A DNA stretch of 64,000 bases from contig BEHT01000012.1 in NCBI GenBank assembly GCA_002898575.1, positions 1 to 64,000 of the forward strand. The letters run 5' to 3'. The notes below the pieces were generated by a model. The model ran no database searches. It was not told the DNA's origin and saw nothing but the letters and a program-made list of their open reading frames with translations. This DNA comes from a bacterium HR17. Its GTDB lineage: Bacteria > Armatimonadota > Fervidibacteria > Fervidibacterales > Fervidibacteraceae. The translations under genes were made by a program, and so were the position numbers. How positions within the stretch are numbered: the stretch's first letter is position 1; each line of letters begins with the position of its first letter. Positions 31,163-60,310 of the stretch are shown one piece after another.

Positions 31163-31263
31163 CGTTTAACACCTCGCAAACAGAGACAGCCAACTCCAAA
31201 TTTTGTCGGCATCTACACCCCAACGCATCCACGGCGCTGTCCGCAAAATTGTCGGTGCGATGC

Positions 31264-31663
31264 CGTGCTGAACAGTTGGGTTCGGTCGGAGGGCGGCTCT
31301 CCCAAGCCGCCAAACAACGGCACGAAAACCGCAGCGGCGCGTCGGGAGACGCGCCCTCCGAGGTGTTGAGGGTTTATTCGGAGGGCGGCTCTCCCAAGCC
31401 GCCAAACAACGGCACGAAAACCGCAGCGGCGCGTCGGGAGACGCGCCCTCCGAGGTGTTGAGGGTTTATTCGGAGGGCGGCTCTCCCAAGCCGCCAAACA
31501 ACGGCACGAAAACCGCAGCGGCGCGTCGGGAGACGCGCCCTCCGAGGTGTTGAGGGTTTATTCGGAGGGCGGCTCTCCCAAGCCGCCAAACAACGGCACG
31601 AAAACCGCAGCGGCGCGTCGGGAGACGCGCCCTCCGAGGCAATGTCACAAGGGAAATTCAACC
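31264..31663 (+). mobile_element. Palindromic-unit mobile element, copy A (four tandem units, 12-bp flanking repeat)
   Basis: A 400-bp insert bounded by perfect direct repeats TCGGTGCGATGC at 31252-31263 and 31664-31675. Inside are four tandem units beginning at 31287, 31379, 31471 and 31563 (period 92 bp, nearly identical; the last unit stops at its closing stem). Each unit has outer stem CGGAGGGC/GCCCTCCG and two inner hairpins, GGCGGCT/AGCCGCC and GGCGCGTC/GACGCGCC. The right end (GGGAAATTCAACC) resembles the right end of copy B, and the left end (GTGCTGAACAG) is a variant of its left end. No open frame here is credible as a protein. It fills most of the 585 bp between the divergent aldo/keto reductase and hisB genes. 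Confidence 0.8.
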
Positions 31664-31747
31664 TCGGTGCGATGCAACTGTCACCTTTTGGGCTATAGAG
31701 CCCAGCCGCAACCGGTGACGGCGCATAATTGGAGCGGGTGAATTGAC

Positions 31748-45626: not shown

Positions 45627-48600
45627 ATGCGAAAGAGGCGCGATTTGGACGAACTTATCCGAGAGTATGCAGGCAAATTGCTACAGCGCATCGGTGAACT
45701 GCTCCCACGCAACCCCAACGAAGCCGAATTCCGCCAGCCTGTAGACCAACTGCTTAGCGAATTTTGTGAGCGCGCCGGCTTGAACCCTCTGGCTCATGCC
45801 GAATACACACTTGCCACAGGACGCACCGATGCCGTGTTTAACCGCCTCGTCATTGAGTATGAGCGACCGAGAACACTCTCCAACAGCCTCTCTCACAGGG
45901 CGACACGGCACGCTGTAGAGCAAGTCAAGCGTTACATTGAAGGCTTGACAAAACGGCAACGCCAAGAGATTACCCGCGTTGCTGGTGTTGCTTTTGACGG
46001 ACGATACCTCGTCTTCGTCCGTTACCGCAGTGGAGGCTTTGCCGTTGAGCATCCAGTTCCTGTCACAAAGGATTCCCTTGAACGCTTTCTGACTTGGCTT
46101 GCAAGTCTTTCATCGGGCATTGCACTGACGGCGGAAAACCTCAATCGCGATTTCAGCATTGAGCAGTTGCGCACGCAGAACATTCTACGCGCCTTGACAC
46201 AAGGTCTTGACACTTCCCTTGCTCAACGAAACCGCATGGTTGTCAACTTGTTTAATCAGTGGCGGGTCTTTTTCAGCGAGTCCATTGACTACACTGAAGC
46301 CTTTGGTGGGCGGAAATTAGAGTCGCTCCAAAAATGGGCTGCTGTGTTGAATAATGGGGTTCAGTCGGAGGGCGGCTCTCCTGAGCCGCCAAAAATCGGC
46401 GCGTCAAAAGACGCGCCCTCCGAGTCGCTGAAGGTTTATTCGGAGGGCGGCTCTCCTGAGCCGCCGAAAAGCGGCGCGTCAAAAGACGCGCCCTCCGAGT
46501 CGCCGAAGGTTCAGTCGGAGGGCGGCTCTCTTGAGCCGCCAAAAAGCGGCGCGTCAAAAGACGCGCCCTCCGAGTCGCCGAAGGTTCAGTCGGAGGGCGG
46601 CTCTCCTGAGCCGCCAAAAATCGGCGCGTCAAAAGACGCGCCCTCCGAGTTGCCGAAGGTTTATTCGGAGGGCGGCTCTCCTGAGCCGCCGAAAAGCGGC
46701 GCGTCAAAAGACGCGCCCTCCGAGTTGCCGAAGGTTTATTCGGAGGGCGGCTCTCTTGAGCCGCCGAAAATTGGCATGAAGGAAAATTCAACAAAGCAAA
46801 AATGGGCGCGCAAGGCAGGGCTAACGGTCATAGAAGCCGAACGCACCTTTTTCTGTCTCCACACCTACTTTGCCCTGCTGGTCAAATTTATCGCATGGCT
46901 GGCACTCTCTCGTCATCTGGCGGTCAAATTGGGCGTCCCGTCTTTCAGCGAATTGGTGACCGCTGACGGCGAAACTTTGCGCCGTCGCCTTGCGGAGATG
47001 GAATCGGGCGGCATCTTCCGCGCCTTTGGCATAACAAATTTGCTGGAAGGCGACTTTTTCGCTTGGTATCTCTACGCTTGGAACGACCGCATTGAGGCTG
47101 CCATCCGCGAGTTGCTTAGGCGCTTGGACGAATACGACCCCGCAACCCTTTCCGTTGTGCCCGAGGAGAGTCGTGACCTTTTCAAGATGCTTTACCACTA
47201 CCTTTTGCCCCGTGAAATCCGCCACAACCTCGGCGAATACTACACGCCCGACTGGCTGGCAATGAGGGTGCTAAATCAAGTTGACAACGAGTTTTTCACT
47301 GCCGACCCGCGCCGTTATGAACGCCGACTGCGTGAGAAGTTGTTGAAGTTGCGTTGGCTTGACCCTGCCTGCGGTTCAGGCACTTTCCTTGTCCTCATCA
47401 TCACCAGAATGCGTGAGTTGGGACGAGAGTTGATGGTCAACGAAACCGAACTCCTCAATGCCATCCTGAACAATGTCGTCGGCTTTGACCTGAACCCATT
47501 GGCAGTCACTGTGTCAAGAGTCAACTATTTGCTGGCAATTGCCGATTTGCTTCCTTACCGCAGAGGCGACATCACCGTCCCTGTTTACCTCGCCGATTCC
47601 GTCCGCACACCTGCAATGGGTGAAGATTTGTTCACGAAAGGCACTTACGAGTTTCCGACCTTTATCGGCAAATTCCTTGTGCCTGCTGTTTTGTGCACGA
47701 AAGAACGCTTTGACCGCTTTTGCGATTTGCTGGAAGAGAGCGTCCGCAAAGAACTTGAGCCTGAAAGTTTCCTGAAGCGCATTGAAGCGAGCCTTCGCCT
47801 TACGCCAGATGAGTGGACGGACGAAGAAGCGGAAGTGGTGCGGGCACTTTACGAACGATTGCTGAACTTGCACAAGAGTGGCATGGATGGGCTTTGGGCT
47901 CGGCTGCTCAAAAACAACTTCGCCCCACTCACCGTCGGACAGTTTGACTATGTCGTCGGAAATCCGCCGTGGGTCAATTGGGAACATTTGCCCGATGGGT
48001 ATCGGCAGTCAATCGCCACGATTTGGCTCAAGTATGGTTTGTTTGAGCAGAAGGGGATGAGAGCGGCGTTCACTAAAGACGACATTTCAGTCTTAATGAC
48101 CTACACAGTTGCCGATGGGTTGCTGAAAGTGGGCGGCAAGTTAGGTTTTATCATAACGCAGTCGGTCTTTAAAACCGAACTCGGAGGGAAAGGCTTCCGT
48201 CGGTTTCTCATTACACGGAACGAAGACAATGCCATACCCTTGTCCGTAATCCATGTAGACGACATGGTCTCGCTTCAGCCTTTTGAGGGCGCTTCCAACC
48301 GCACGGCAGTGATGATTTTGGAGAAAGGCAAGCCGACAAAGTATCCCGTGCCTTACACCGTTTGGCGAAAAAAGAAAGGTGCTCGCTTCACCTACGACAG
48401 CACCTTAGAGGAAGTAGAGGCTGCTACACGACGGCTCAATTTTGTCGCCGAACCAGTAGACGCCGACGACTTTACCTCTCCTTGGCTTACTGCTCGCCCT
48501 AAAGCACTTCGTGCCGTGCGCAAAGTTCTTGGGCAATCCGACTACAAGGCTCACGAGGGTGTCAACACCGGCGGCGCCAATGCCGTCTACTGGGTAGAGA

Positions 48601-49433
48601 TAGTGCTCAAGCGTCCCGATGGGCTGGTGGTGGTGCGCAACATCACCGAGGGCGCTAAGGTCAAGGTGGACGAGGTGACTGAAGCCATTGAACCCGACTT
48701 GCTTTATCCGCTTTTGCGGGGACGAGATGTGCGACGCTGGCAGGCGGAACCGTCAGCATGGATCATCGTGCCCCATACCCCTGAAACTCGGATGCGCCCA
48801 ATCCCGATGAAGACTATGCAACAGAAACATCCACGCACTTTTGGATACCTCTCACGATTCAGAGAAGTCCTTGACCGAAGGCGTGGCTTCACAGGGTGGG
48901 AAAGGCAGTTTCAGCAGGAGGCTTTCTACGCCATTCAGCGAATCGGCGACTACACCTTCGCTTCGTGGAAGGTGGTGTGGACAAGGTTTGCGCAAATTGA
49001 GGCAGCAGTGATTGGCTTGCATCAAGGGAAACCTGTAGTGCCACAGGAAACTGTCACTTTGGTTGAATGTAGCAACAAAGAGGAGGCGCACTACATTGCA
49101 GCATTAGTCAACGCGTCACCATTTCAATTTGCTGCCGTCTCCTACAGCCAAGAGGGAGGTAAAAGCATGGGTTCTATGCATGTCCTTGAGCACATCCGCA
49201 TCCCTCGCTACGACCCGTCCAATCCTGTTCATCGTCGGCTTTCGGAGTTATCGGAGCAGGCGCACGAAGCGGCGAAGGCGGGGGATGACAAACGCTTGAG
49301 AGAGATTGAGGCAAAGATTGACATTCAAGCGGCGAAACTTTGGGGCTTGACCGATGAAGAGTTGTGGGACATTCAGCAGAGTTTGGCTGAATTGGGAGGC
49401 GAGGGAGATGAGGGAGATTCGCCAGATTCGTGA
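45627..49433 (+). CDS. Large N6-adenine DNA methyltransferase with an in-frame palindromic-element insert
   Basis: A 1268-residue protein. Residues 1-240 have a nuclease-like look (ATGRTDAVFNRLVIEYERP resembles a PD-(D/E)XK core, but the expected Lys is Glu, so cleavage is doubtful). Residues ~238-394 are the low-complexity insert encoded by the mobile element. The helical domain (RTFFCLHTYFALLVKFIAW) follows, then the methylase: EIRHNLGEYYTPDWLA, motif I LDPACGSGTF (Asp ~579), and motif IV GNPPWVNW (Asn ~779). The rest is probably target recognition (GRDVRRW). The family resembles Eco57I/type IIG-like or BREX/DISARM-type methylases. It overlaps the NurA-like gene by 26 bp. Without the insert it would be 1112 residues. 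Confidence 0.85.
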   Translation: MRKRRDLDELIREYAGKLLQRIGELLPRNPNEAEFRQPVDQLLSEFCERAGLNPLAHAEYTLATGRTDAVFNRLVIEYERPRTLSNSLSHRATRHAVEQVKRYIEGLTKRQRQEITRVAGVAFDGRYLVFVRYRSGGFAVEHPVPVTKDSLERFLTWLASLSSGIALTAENLNRDFSIEQLRTQNILRALTQGLDTSLAQRNRMVVNLFNQWRVFFSESIDYTEAFGGRKLESLQKWAAVLNNGVQSEGGSPEPPKIGASKDAPSESLKVYSEGGSPEPPKSGASKDAPSESPKVQSEGGSLEPPKSGASKDAPSESPKVQSEGGSPEPPKIGASKDAPSELPKVYSEGGSPEPPKSGASKDAPSELPKVYSEGGSLEPPKIGMKENSTKQKWARKAGLTVIEAERTFFCLHTYFALLVKFIAWLALSRHLAVKLGVPSFSELVTADGETLRRRLAEMESGGIFRAFGITNLLEGDFFAWYLYAWNDRIEAAIRELLRRLDEYDPATLSVVPEESRDLFKMLYHYLLPREIRHNLGEYYTPDWLAMRVLNQVDNEFFTADPRRYERRLREKLLKLRWLDPACGSGTFLVLIITRMRELGRELMVNETELLNAILNNVVGFDLNPLAVTVSRVNYLLAIADLLPYRRGDITVPVYLADSVRTPAMGEDLFTKGTYEFPTFIGKFLVPAVLCTKERFDRFCDLLEESVRKELEPESFLKRIEASLRLTPDEWTDEEAEVVRALYERLLNLHKSGMDGLWARLLKNNFAPLTVGQFDYVVGNPPWVNWEHLPDGYRQSIATIWLKYGLFEQKGMRAAFTKDDISVLMTYTVADGLLKVGGKLGFIITQSVFKTELGGKGFRRFLITRNEDNAIPLSVIHVDDMVSLQPFEGASNRTAVMILEKGKPTKYPVPYTVWRKKKGARFTYDSTLEEVEAATRRLNFVAEPVDADDFTSPWLTARPKALRAVRKVLGQSDYKAHEGVNTGGANAVYWVEIVLKRPDGLVVVRNITEGAKVKVDEVTEAIEPDLLYPLLRGRDVRRWQAEPSAWIIVPHTPETRMRPIPMKTMQQKHPRTFGYLSRFREVLDRRRGFTGWERQFQQEAFYAIQRIGDYTFASWKVVWTRFAQIEAAVIGLHQGKPVVPQETVTLVECSNKEEAHYIAALVNASPFQFAAVSYSQEGGKSMGSMHVLEHIRIPRYDPSNPVHRRLSELSEQAHEAAKAGDDKRLREIEAKIDIQAAKLWGLTDEELWDIQQSLAELGGEGDEGDSPDS
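46340..46807 (+). mobile_element. Palindromic-unit mobile element, copy B, inserted in frame inside the methyltransferase gene
   Basis: CAAAAATGGGC occurs at 46329-46339 and again at 46797-46807, a perfect 11-bp direct repeat on both sides. The added DNA is 468 bp, exactly 156 codons. Five full 75-bp units start at 46365, 46440, 46515, 46590 and 46665, and a partial one at 46740. A unit reads stem TCGGAG, hairpin GGCGGCTC-TCCT-GAGCCGCC, hairpin GGCGCGTC-AAAA-GACGCGCC, stem CTCCGA, then a 16-base linker. The ends CTGTGTTGAAT and (reversed) CTTTGTTGAAT differ at one of 11 positions. The encoded peptide repeats SEGGSPEPPK...GASKDAPSE. Confidence 0.8.
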
Positions 49434-50547
49434 TGCCTTGAGGGAATGGAGCAAAAATGTGGAAGTGCTCCCTGCAGCGGGTGGGGCGCTGGAAGATTTG
49501 CTCCATCCCGACGCCGAAGAGCAAGAGGAGCGTGCCTACTCCGACGAAGCCATCTTTGACACAATCTTTGAGCGCTCTGACGGAGGTGAATGGTGGCGGG
49601 AAAGCCTTTATCGTCCGACACCGCCTGTCACTCGCAACCAACAACATTTGTTCCGCTACTTTCTGGACGGTTCGCTCCGCTCTTATTTTCTCGGCACTGT
49701 CTTGGAAGGTGACCGCAGTTCACCCGTCCATTACGCTCAAATTGGCGCTTGTTGCCTTTTGCGGCGCGATGCCGGGACAGTGCAAAGGGAGCAGGTAGAG
49801 ACCCGCCATCTGATCCTCGTCAATCGCAGAAGCCTTTCAGATACAGCATGGCAATACTTTGAGAACCTCCTTACGAATGCATCTGCCGTTTTGGAAGACT
49901 TAGCAGCGCCCGACATATTCAGTCGCTCTTACGGCGATGTTGATTTGCGGGTGCGAGCGGGAGGCAAAACCCGCTACAAGATGCGGGAACTGGAAGCGGA
50001 AGTGATGGAGCAAATCCTTTCCAACTTGAACGAGAGAACTTGGCTCGTCATGGACGGCTCATTGATGTTCCAACCGATTTTGCAGAGGCTGCAGCAACAT
50101 TACGGCGAGCAAATTCCGCCTGTTTTGGGTGTCTCCAAAAACTTTCGCAAAGACCCGCAATTCGTCTTCGGGCGCGGACCGAGGGCACAGCGTTTCTCCA
50201 TTTACAGCCTGTTAGCACATTTGAAGCACGAGCATCGGACGGTCGCCTTCAGCGCTTACGACGGGCAAATTGTCTTTTGGTATGTTCGGCTACGCCCACA
50301 AGGACAAGTGGATTACCCGCTCATGGGTGTTGTCAAATGCGAATTGGTCACCGCCGATCGGCAACCCGTTCCGACAGAACTTTTGGATTTGCTTTCGCAG
50401 GCGTTGGTGGCGGAAAGAAATGTCACACCGCACGGGCGTGACCGTCGCTGGCACGCTCACCTTTACCCCATCTTTTTGGCAGAACAAGCCATCCGCAACG
50501 CTTTTTATTCGCGGGAGGTTGTGCAACAACTGATGCGATGGAGGTGA
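49408..50547 (+). CDS. NurA-like nuclease
   Basis: About 379 residues. Two DGS motifs, in FRYFLDGSLRSYFLG (Asp ~87) and TWLVMDGSLMF (Asp ~216), fit the metal-binding aspartates of the NurA nuclease fold. The later parts (LGVSKNFRKDPQFVFG, KHEHRTVAFSAYDGQIVFWYVRL, YPLMGVVKCEL) fit its core strands. NurA resects DNA ends together with the HerA ATPase. ATG 49408 follows GGGAGGCGAGG; a longer frame from 49354 is less likely. It overlaps the methyltransferase end and stops 5 bp before the HerA-like start, so the three are one operon. Confidence 0.75.
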   Translation: MREIRQIRDALREWSKNVEVLPAAGGALEDLLHPDAEEQEERAYSDEAIFDTIFERSDGGEWWRESLYRPTPPVTRNQQHLFRYFLDGSLRSYFLGTVLEGDRSSPVHYAQIGACCLLRRDAGTVQREQVETRHLILVNRRSLSDTAWQYFENLLTNASAVLEDLAAPDIFSRSYGDVDLRVRAGGKTRYKMRELEAEVMEQILSNLNERTWLVMDGSLMFQPILQRLQQHYGEQIPPVLGVSKNFRKDPQFVFGRGPRAQRFSIYSLLAHLKHEHRTVAFSAYDGQIVFWYVRLRPQGQVDYPLMGVVKCELVTADRQPVPTELLDLLSQALVAERNVTPHGRDRRWHAHLYPIFLAEQAIRNAFYSREVVQQLMRWR

Positions 50548-50552
50548 GCGCG

Positions 50553-52244
50553 ATGAACGAAGAGCGCCCCATCATTGGTTTAGTATCGGCGACATCAACT
50601 GAACCCACCAGTTCTGACAACTTCGCTTTTTGGCTTTCGCCAGATGTCATCGTTAACCCCTTTGACATCGTGGAAGCCGAACAAGTCGCCCACGATGGGA
50701 CAAGTCGCACCTTTGGCATTGTCACCACACTGGAACACACGACCGATGCACCGACGCACCTTTCCAACTTCATCTCAAACGATTTCGGGCAAGTGGGTGT
50801 TGAACCAAACACCGTTCGTCAAGGGACGACCGTCGCTAAAGTGGCAGTGCTTTCCAACGACAAAGACATTTACATGCCCGTCCAATGTGACCGCCCCGTT
50901 CGCTTCGCCGATGAAGCAGGCATCCATGTGGCGTTGGGTGTGGACAAAATTCCAGAGCGCTATCGCGTGCCTGCCGGACTCATCCGCATGTCCAACGGAA
51001 CACAAGCGGTCGTTTACTTGGATTTGCGCTATGTGCTTGGACCTGAAGGGGCACATGTGAACATTACGGGCATTTCGGGCTTAGCGACGAAGACCAGTTA
51101 CGCCATGTTCCTGTTGCAATCCATACTGCAAACTGCCGAGCAAGTGGGATTACGCAACAAAATCGGGGTCATCATCCTAAATGTCAAGCACGGTGACTTG
51201 CTCAGTATTGATCAGCCACCTAAAGGCGGTTTGGAGCCTGAGCAGCACGAACTATGGGAGCGGTTGGGCTTGATGCCCAAGCCTTTTGACAGTGTTCGCT
51301 ACTTGCTGCCTCACGGAAAAGAGACGCCCAGAACAGGCTACCCCAACAGTTTCCGCCTACCCGAACGCAACTGGTCAATTTACGCTTACTCGCTTCAGGA
51401 TACTTACAACAAACTTGACTTGCTGCTTTCTAACATTCCCGATCCGTGGGATACGATTGGTGCTCTCATCGGTGAAATCATGCAGGGACTCTCCGACCCC
51501 AACACGGGACAATGGGGTCCGCAGAGGAACTGGGCACAGGCAACTACTTGGAGATCACTTCTCAACGGACCACCTCTTTTTGACCCAAACACGGGACAGG
51601 CAAGACAAGTGGGTGAAGTGAGGGCTGTTTCTGTCGGTCGCTTTCGGCGCATTCTGCGGCGCATTGTGGAGACCCGCCAAAGCGGCGTTTTCGTCAGCCA
51701 AAGGGCAAGGAACATCAGAAACTTGAGCGAGGAGATTGCGAAAATGCGTGGCGGTGAAGTCATTGTCGTTGACATCGCTCGCCTAACAGACGACGAGCAA
51801 ACTTTGGTTTTTGGTGACATCCTGAGGACAGTTTACGCGCTCTACGCTGAAGAGGGAAGCGAGCGGGAAGATTTGCCAGAAAAGGTCGTCATCTTTGTGG
51901 ACGAGTTGAACAAGTATGCACCTGCCCGTGAAAAGGAGTCGCCCATCATTGAGCAAGTGTTGGACATCGCCGAACGAGGTCGGTCATTGGGTGTAGTGCT
52001 TTTTGGCGCTGAACAATTCATGAGCGCTGTTCACGAACGCGTAGCGGGCAACTGCTCCACTATTGTCGTTGGGCGTAGCGGCTCGGCAGAATTATCTGCC
52101 GTGCACTATCGCTTCCTTGAACAGTCGGTGAAAGCCAACATCACTCGGCTGGAGAAAGGCGAACTGGTGCTGAGCCACGCCATTTATCGCCAGCCGATAA
52201 AAATCATCTTCCCGAAGCCCGCATATTTGCAAGAGGGGACATGA
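50553..52244 (+). CDS. HerA-like DNA-pumping ATPase
   Basis: A 563-residue protein. A HAS-barrel-like N-terminus (VIVNPFDIVEAEQ) precedes the ATPase. The P-loop region NITGISGLATKTSYAM (~170-185) is a variant of GxxxxGKT. Walker B VVIFVDELNKYAP has Asp ~450 and Glu ~451. The sensor/arginine-finger part RGRSLGVVLFGAEQFMSAVHERVAGNCSTIVVGRSG follows. HerA hexamers move on duplex DNA and feed NurA. The start at 50553 has GGAGGTGA just ahead. Position directly after the NurA-like gene supports a working pair. Confidence 0.82.
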   Translation: MNEERPIIGLVSATSTEPTSSDNFAFWLSPDVIVNPFDIVEAEQVAHDGTSRTFGIVTTLEHTTDAPTHLSNFISNDFGQVGVEPNTVRQGTTVAKVAVLSNDKDIYMPVQCDRPVRFADEAGIHVALGVDKIPERYRVPAGLIRMSNGTQAVVYLDLRYVLGPEGAHVNITGISGLATKTSYAMFLLQSILQTAEQVGLRNKIGVIILNVKHGDLLSIDQPPKGGLEPEQHELWERLGLMPKPFDSVRYLLPHGKETPRTGYPNSFRLPERNWSIYAYSLQDTYNKLDLLLSNIPDPWDTIGALIGEIMQGLSDPNTGQWGPQRNWAQATTWRSLLNGPPLFDPNTGQARQVGEVRAVSVGRFRRILRRIVETRQSGVFVSQRARNIRNLSEEIAKMRGGEVIVVDIARLTDDEQTLVFGDILRTVYALYAEEGSEREDLPEKVVIFVDELNKYAPAREKESPIIEQVLDIAERGRSLGVVLFGAEQFMSAVHERVAGNCSTIVVGRSGSAELSAVHYRFLEQSVKANITRLEKGELVLSHAIYRQPIKIIFPKPAYLQEGT

Positions 52245-57775: not shown

Positions 57776-57781
57776 GCGGGT

Positions 57782-57955
57782 GCCGCATTGAATAAGGGGT
57801 TTATTCGGAGGGCGGCTCTCTGAGCCGCCGAAAAGAGAGAAAGCAGCGCATCAGGAGATGCGCCCTCCGAATGCTCTCGGAGGGCGGCTCTCCCGAGCCG
57901 CCGAAAAGCAAGCGGCGCGTCAAAAGACGCGCCCTCCGAATGTAGAGGGTTTATG
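57782..57955 (+). mobile_element. Palindromic-unit element, copy C (two units, right end missing)
   Basis: The left end GCATTGAATAAGGGGTTTAT resembles copy B. Unit 1 (57805-57870) has the inner hairpins GGCGGCTC/GAGCCGCC and GCGCATC/GATGCGC. Unit 2 (57877-57939) has GGCGGCTC/GAGCCGCC and GGCGCGTC/GACGCGCC. The end after 57939 (ATGTAGAGGGTTTAT) is linker-like, and no ATTCAAC end or flanking repeat was found, so this copy may be truncated. It lies between the convergent rnc and metallohydrolase genes, where its hairpins could act as terminators. Confidence 0.65.
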
Positions 57956-59933: not shown

Positions 59934-60010
59934 TGCACCGTCTCCTTTCTCAACTCTGGGTCGTCGGCAACACCGCTAATTGTGCCACGCATATCTTGCC
60001 TTGTGCCGGG

Positions 60011-60272
60011 CTTTGTTGATTTTTTCCTTTCTGCACTACTTCGGAGGGCGCATCTCCTGATGCGCCGCTTTCTCTCTTTTCGGCGGCTCAGAGAGCCGCC
60101 CTCCGAGAGCATTCGGAGGGCGCATCTCCTGATGCGCCGCTTTCTCCCTTCGGCGGCTCAGAGAGCCGCCCTCCGAGAGCATTCGGAGGGCGCATCTCCT
60201 GATGCGCTGCTTTCTCTCTTTTCGGCGGCTCGGGAGAGCCGCCCTCCGACTGAACGCCATTATTCAACACAG
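60011..60272 (-). mobile_element. Palindromic-unit element, copy D (three units, reverse orientation)
   Basis: Reverse-oriented. Units start at 60041, 60113 and 60183, each closing with GCCCTCCGA. The element's left end, read on the minus strand, is CTGTGTTGAATAATGGCGTT, the same as copy B but for one base in this stretch. Its other end, CTTTGTTGATTTTTTCC, matches copy B's CTTTGTTGAATTTTCC closely. The 12 bases outside each end, CCTTGTGCCGGG (59999-60010) and CCTTGCGCTGCT (60273-60284), agree at 8 of 12 positions and may be a decayed target duplication. It lies between the divergent metallohydrolase and kinase genes; the rest of 59934-60310 holds no gene. Confidence 0.75.
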
Positions 60273-60310
60273 CCTTGCGCTGCTAAAATCAACGGCGGGG
60301 TGTGTTGGGG

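What the first reader, a model, noticed from the sequence alone, without database searches (positions are those of the whole stretch)
46329..46807. Mobile element inserted in frame inside a DNA methyltransferase gene, adding exactly 156 codons
Seen: CAAAAATGGGC flanks the insert on both sides; the added DNA is 468 bp, a multiple of three; five full 75-bp units and a partial one are read through without a stop, giving a Ser/Gly/Pro/Lys-rich repeat. Joining across the direct repeat restores LQKWARKAGLTVIEAERTF, which reads as a natural domain. The unit here is 75 bp (divisible by three), while the intergenic copy A has 92 bp units. Known: Rickettsia palindromic elements also insert in frame into protein genes. 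Inferred: the unit has been selected, or trimmed, to be tolerated as a linker, so unit number can vary without a frameshift.
Basis: partly seen in the sequence, partly recalled or inferred. Interest (0 to 1): 0.9.

Follow-up and report, generated by a model that had tools for sequence, protein, structure and literature searches.

The report
Mobile repeat inserted in-frame in restriction enzyme
A small mobile DNA element, which carries a row of repeated hairpin-forming units and has spread through this bacterium's genome, landed inside a restriction-modification enzyme gene and is read straight through, adding 156 amino acids; parasitic DNA turning into a protein linker is known from Rickettsia, but this element family, with its expandable core, appears to be undescribed.

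Summary
A 459-bp element (46340-46798) lies inside an intact 1268-codon type IIG restriction-modification gene. It has 12-bp terminal inverted repeats (TGCTGTGTTGAA / TTCAACAAAGCA) and a perfect 9-bp target duplication, AAAATGGGC. 459 + 9 = 468 bp = 156 codons. The nearest homologue (HRbin10) and two others are empty exactly there, and a profile of the enzyme family is continuous across the site. The core is a tandem array of 75-bp units, each able to fold into a two-hairpin cruciform. More than 100 arrays of the family occur in this genome. Among 33 elements with both ends recognised, 16 have 8-9 bp flanking duplications (0.6 expected). The exact core is private to this genome among 291 of its phylum. 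In 82% of the genome this is the only array found inside a gene. Its units are closer to each other than to any other unit found, and carry 14 substitutions but no indel (elsewhere 203 indels per 600 substitutions), which suggests expansion in place with the frame kept. Unit length 75 is one of many in the genome, so survivorship explains it without 'trimming'. It works like a Rickettsia palindromic element built like a pneumococcal BOX element.

The parts
45627..49433 (+). Type IIG restriction enzyme-methyltransferase gene, 1268 aa, with the element inside
   Evidence: ORF; profiles (PADLOC REase_II PDLC03580, 1669.6 bits; Pfam Eco57I, MmeI_Mtase)
46331..46339 (+). Left target-site duplication AAAATGGGC
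46340..46798 (+). Inserted element, 459 bp (153 codons), MITE-like with modular core
   Evidence: absent from homologues
46340..46351 (+). Left terminal inverted repeat TGCTGTGTTGAA (start of conserved left end TGCTGTGTTGAATAATGGGGTT)
46365..46739 (+). Five tandem 75-bp units, each with a two-hairpin cruciform, translated SEGGSPEPPK(I/S)GASKDAPSE(S/L)PKV(Y/Q)
46740..46770 (+). Partial sixth unit (first hairpin only)
46787..46798 (+). Right terminal inverted repeat TTCAACAAAGCA
46799..46807 (+). Right target-site duplication AAAATGGGC
31261..31663 (+). Intergenic copy of the same family, four 92-bp units, flanked by direct repeat TCGGTGCGA (31252-31260 and 31664-31672)
60009..60274 (-). Another copy, both ends present, three units of about 70 bp
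57781..57939 (+). Another copy, two units, left end present

Best explanation
A non-autonomous, MITE-like element transposed into the region between the N-terminal nuclease domain and the methyltransferase part of a type IIG restriction-modification enzyme, duplicating 9 bp of target. Its terminal repeats were presumably recognised in trans by a transposase not identified here. By chance the element's length plus duplication was a multiple of three and it landed in the element's single open frame on that strand, so the gene is read through and the protein gains a Ser/Pro/Gly/Lys-rich, probably disordered linker. The cruciform core probably expanded in place by 75-bp steps, through slippage or unequal recombination between units; only changes that kept the frame survived. 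Shown: insertion, duplication, empty sites, family in the genome, open frame, private unit lineage. Inferred: transposase in trans, expansion after insertion, retained enzyme activity, absence of any benefit.
For: Empty site in three homologues at exactly this point; the family profile is continuous from position 230 to 235 across the insert. Perfect 9-bp duplication and matching inverted ends. Of 33 elements with both ends, 16 have a duplication of at least 7/8, against 0.6 expected. 803 half-sites in the genome against 13 control. The consensus element has one open frame per strand, and the one used here is the open one. Units within the array differ at 2-5 positions from each other but at 10 or more from every unit found elsewhere. 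14 substitutions and no indel, against 203 indels per 600 substitutions elsewhere, P about 0.02-0.03. Five of the six variable codons change the amino acid, so only the frame looks constrained. Insert predicted without secondary structure, pLDDT about 22-25 (low-confidence model overall). Downstream NurA-like and HerA-like genes intact, in the same order as in two homologous loci.
Against: No transposase with matching ends was found in 2.59 of 3.15 Mb. The indel test pools arrays of different ages and reaches only P about 0.02-0.03. No transcript, peptide or activity data. The source is a draft assembly whose contigs often end in these arrays, so the exact unit number may be wrong.
Confidence: 0.85

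Rival explanations
1. The enzyme is already inactivated: the insert abolishes function and the gene is a young pseudogene that has not yet gathered stops or frameshifts.
For: The target duplication is still perfect, so the insertion may be recent. If the flanks had drifted neutrally at the array's rate, only about 2.2 stops would be expected, and seeing none has probability 0.11.
Against: No stop or frameshift in about 1110 flanking codons; methylase motifs (LDPACGSG, GNPPW) intact; no indels in the array; partner genes intact.
Confidence: 0.25
2. The array is an assembly artefact: repeat copies from elsewhere were wrongly joined into the gene.
For: Draft assembly; many contigs end inside such arrays.
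Against: Both unique flanks lie in one contig with a target duplication and inverted ends as in other copies. The units form a private lineage not found elsewhere in the fetched genome. The joined flanks match homologues exactly.
Confidence: 0.05
3. The repeat is a functional linker under positive selection, for example tuning the distance between nuclease and methylase in 25-residue steps.
For: Frame kept through unit changes; position between domains.
Against: Mostly amino-acid-changing differences between units; no homologue has a linker there; simple tolerance explains everything seen.
Confidence: 0.08
4. The repeat is an old, native repeat domain of this enzyme family.
For: It is open and regular.
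Against: Absent from the family profile and from all homologues examined; the same DNA family lies in more than 100 places, nearly all outside genes.
Confidence: 0.01

Closest known systems
Rickettsia palindromic elements (RPE; reviewed in PMC2229807 and PMC10969869)
   Same: Short palindromic non-autonomous repeats with an open frame, found inserted in frame in conserved protein genes; one carrier protein (guanylate kinase) is translated and active.
   Different: RPEs are about 105-150 bp and nearly half sit in genes; target duplication is uncertain for them. Here the element is 459 bp with a tandem core, makes 8-9 bp duplications, and only one array was found in a gene.
Pneumococcal BOX elements (PMC3049150)
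   Same: Fixed left and right modules around a variable number of tandem structured core modules; non-autonomous; size varies; can form open frames.
   Different: The core unit here is a two-hairpin cruciform; BOX gene insertions described in that paper disrupt the genes rather than extend them. Sequences were not compared.
Enterobacterial ERIC and Yersinia YPAL elements (PMC2229807)
   Same: Mobile palindromes with open frames fused in frame to other genes.
   Different: No tandem expandable core is described for them in that review; sequences were not compared.
REP/REPIN elements with Y1 (RAYT) transposases
   Same: High-copy palindromic repeats, private to a lineage, mostly between genes.
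   Different: Here there are terminal inverted repeats and target duplications; the genome's single Y1 transposase has no copy of the element beside it.

Membership tests
MITE (miniature inverted-repeat transposable element) | Terminal inverted repeats | tested here: met
   TGCTGTGTTGAA / TTCAACAAAGCA, same ends in 33 bounded copies
MITE (miniature inverted-repeat transposable element) | Target-site duplication of fixed size | tested here: met
   8-9 bp; 16 of 33 at least 7/8 identical, 0.6 expected
MITE (miniature inverted-repeat transposable element) | No transposase of its own; mobilised by an IS with matching ends | tested here: inconclusive
   No coding capacity beyond the read-through frame; no IS with these ends in the 82% examined
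Rickettsia palindromic elements | In-frame insertion in protein genes with an element-borne open frame | tested here: met
   One case; consensus has one open frame per strand
Rickettsia palindromic elements | Sequence relationship to RPE families in Rickettsia | not tested
   No RPE sequence was compared; not claimed as a member, only as working alike
BOX elements | Two end modules flanking a variable number of tandem core modules | tested here: met
   Left end, 1 to about 15 units, right end
BOX elements | Sequence homology to boxA/boxB/boxC of streptococci | not tested
   No BOX sequence was compared; not claimed as a member
REP/REPIN with RAYT | Associated Y1 transposase flanked by the repeats | tested here: not met
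   Single Y1_Tnp gene at C41:29343 without repeats within about 1.3 kb on either side

The most novel reading that the evidence does not exclude
The in-frame array is a length-variable linker that changes in 25-residue steps, so that a mobile element has made a contingency-type locus: strains of one population would carry restriction enzymes with different linker lengths and different balances of cutting and methylation.
Probability: 0.08. Interest if true: 0.8.

Novelty: new variant of a known kind. Interest (0 to 1): 0.52.

Why it matters
It gives a clean case outside Rickettsia, with empty homologous sites, a target duplication and a multi-copy source family, of selfish DNA becoming protein sequence. 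Because the inserted element has an expandable tandem core, it also makes testable how such inserts keep their frame while they grow, and whether a large multidomain enzyme tolerates a 156-residue linker of parasitic origin.

Tried and rejected
Autonomous partner element: searched for paired ends 0.6-3.5 kb apart; only chance pairs or arrays. Y1 transposase as mobiliser: one gene, no repeats near it. Other in-gene arrays: all other open frames spanning arrays were upstream extensions of genes (purA and others) or antisense-looking frames. Viral contigs and plasmids: no match. Structure prediction: too few homologues, mean pLDDT 47-48, so only the lack of structure in the insert and the better N-terminal domain are used. 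Solved structures: only a marginal MmeI match, which does not cover the insertion site. Neutral-drift test of flanking codons: not significant, P 0.11. The Ogata 2002 paper on RPEs was not held.

Full report
Observation. The 11-bp repeat CAAAAATGGGC is at 46329-46339 and 46797-46807, 468 bp apart. Tandem Repeats Finder gives 5.5 copies of a 75-bp unit with 94% matches and no indels. The whole lies in one open frame, 45627-49433, 1268 aa.

Host gene. Pfam finds Eco57I and MmeI methylase domains. PADLOC matches the complete protein to a type II/IIG restriction enzyme profile with 1670 bits in two stretches. The left flank covers profile positions 6-230 and the right flank 235-1104. The insert therefore sits between neighbouring profile positions, after the N-terminal, presumably nuclease, domain.

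Empty sites. HRbin10 (71% identity by tblastn), a Bipolaricaulota MAG and a Bacteroidia MAG encode full or partial homologues. All three continue directly through KW(A/V)xKAxL with no insert. A homologue in another genome of the same phylum also lacks it (L015).

The element. Comparing copies across the genome defines a left end TGCTGTGTTGAATAATGGGGTT, a core of one to about fifteen units, and a right end GGAAAATTCAACAAAGCA. Over 33 elements with both ends recognised, flanks agree at 74% over 8-9 bp against 45% (sd 2.4) for shuffled pairs, and 16 have at least 7/8 identity against 0.6 expected. The intergenic copy at 31261-31663 is flanked by TCGGTGCGA on both sides.

The core unit. One strand folds into an outer stem with two hairpins (DNA, -26 kcal/mol, z -7.5). 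Diverged relatives in a genome of the same order and in one of the same genus keep the structure: 96.7% of cells pair, 15 cells changed on both sides, and slid controls pair only 37-49%. The exact core occurs 378 times here and at most once in each of the other 290 genomes of the phylum. The two same-genus genomes are only 61-63% complete, so absence there is weaker evidence.

Where copies lie. In 2.59 of 3.15 Mb, 102 arrays were examined. The only one found inside a gene is this one; other open frames that cross arrays are gene starts lying downstream or antisense-looking frames. No gene caller was available, so this is by inspection of open frames. Contig ends often fall in arrays (9 of 14 tested 3' ends), which is why unit counts from this assembly need care.

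Frame. The consensus element has one stop-free frame on each strand, and the gene uses the open one. The 115-bp consensus plus 9 bp would shift the frame; this copy, 459 + 9, does not. Element lengths across the genome fall in all three classes modulo 3, and unit lengths range from about 59 to 96. The simplest reading is survivorship. After insertion the frame seems to have been kept: neighbouring units here show 14 substitutions and no indel, whereas other arrays show 600 and 203 (173 not multiples of three), P about 0.02 for any indel and 0.03 for frame-breaking ones (arrays pooled, so indicative only). Five of the six variable codons change the amino acid, so the peptide itself looks unconstrained. 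Units in the array are closer to each other (2-5 differences) than to any unit elsewhere in the fetched sequence (10 or more), which favours expansion in place.

Is the protein made and active? Unknown. The flanks are intact for about 1110 codons; the downstream NurA-like (name given from motifs, no Pfam match) and HerA-like genes are intact and in the same order in HRbin10 and the Bipolaricaulota MAG. A neutral-drift test is not decisive (P 0.11).

Known context. In-frame palindromic repeats in proteins were described in Rickettsia, where one carrier enzyme is translated and active (PMC2229807, PMC10969869). Variable tandem cores between fixed ends are the hallmark of pneumococcal BOX elements (PMC3049150). 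This element combines both behaviours. No paper describing this family was found in the searches made, which cover only an open-access library.

Noticed in passing
window 49354-52244 and L009 9324-12142, L010 9243-12164: The IIG enzyme is followed by a NurA-like nuclease (named from motifs) and a HerA-like ATPase; the same three-gene order occurs in HRbin10 and a Bipolaricaulota MAG, suggesting a horizontally spread defence module.
   Followed up: partly
G000 contigs C1, C2, C5, C6, C9, C12, C24, C46, C59 (3' ends) and ten contig starts: Assembly contigs of this genome often end inside arrays of this element.
   Followed up: partly
G000:C12:66457-67564 (just beyond the window): An array of at least 14 units of 74 bp with both ends and an exact 8-bp duplication CTGAACTC; element length 1164 bp.
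   Followed up: partly
G004 contigs C80, C83, C85, C128, C132 and G002:C70 (L145-L150): Diverged single copies of the cruciform core (TGGAGGGTGGCTCTCCTGAGCCACC...GGTGCATCAGGAGATGCACCCTCCA) with compensated stems in relatives.
   Followed up: partly
window 31286-31639: Four 92-bp units 100% identical, so probably a recent expansion, in contrast to the 94% identical array in the gene.
   Followed up: no
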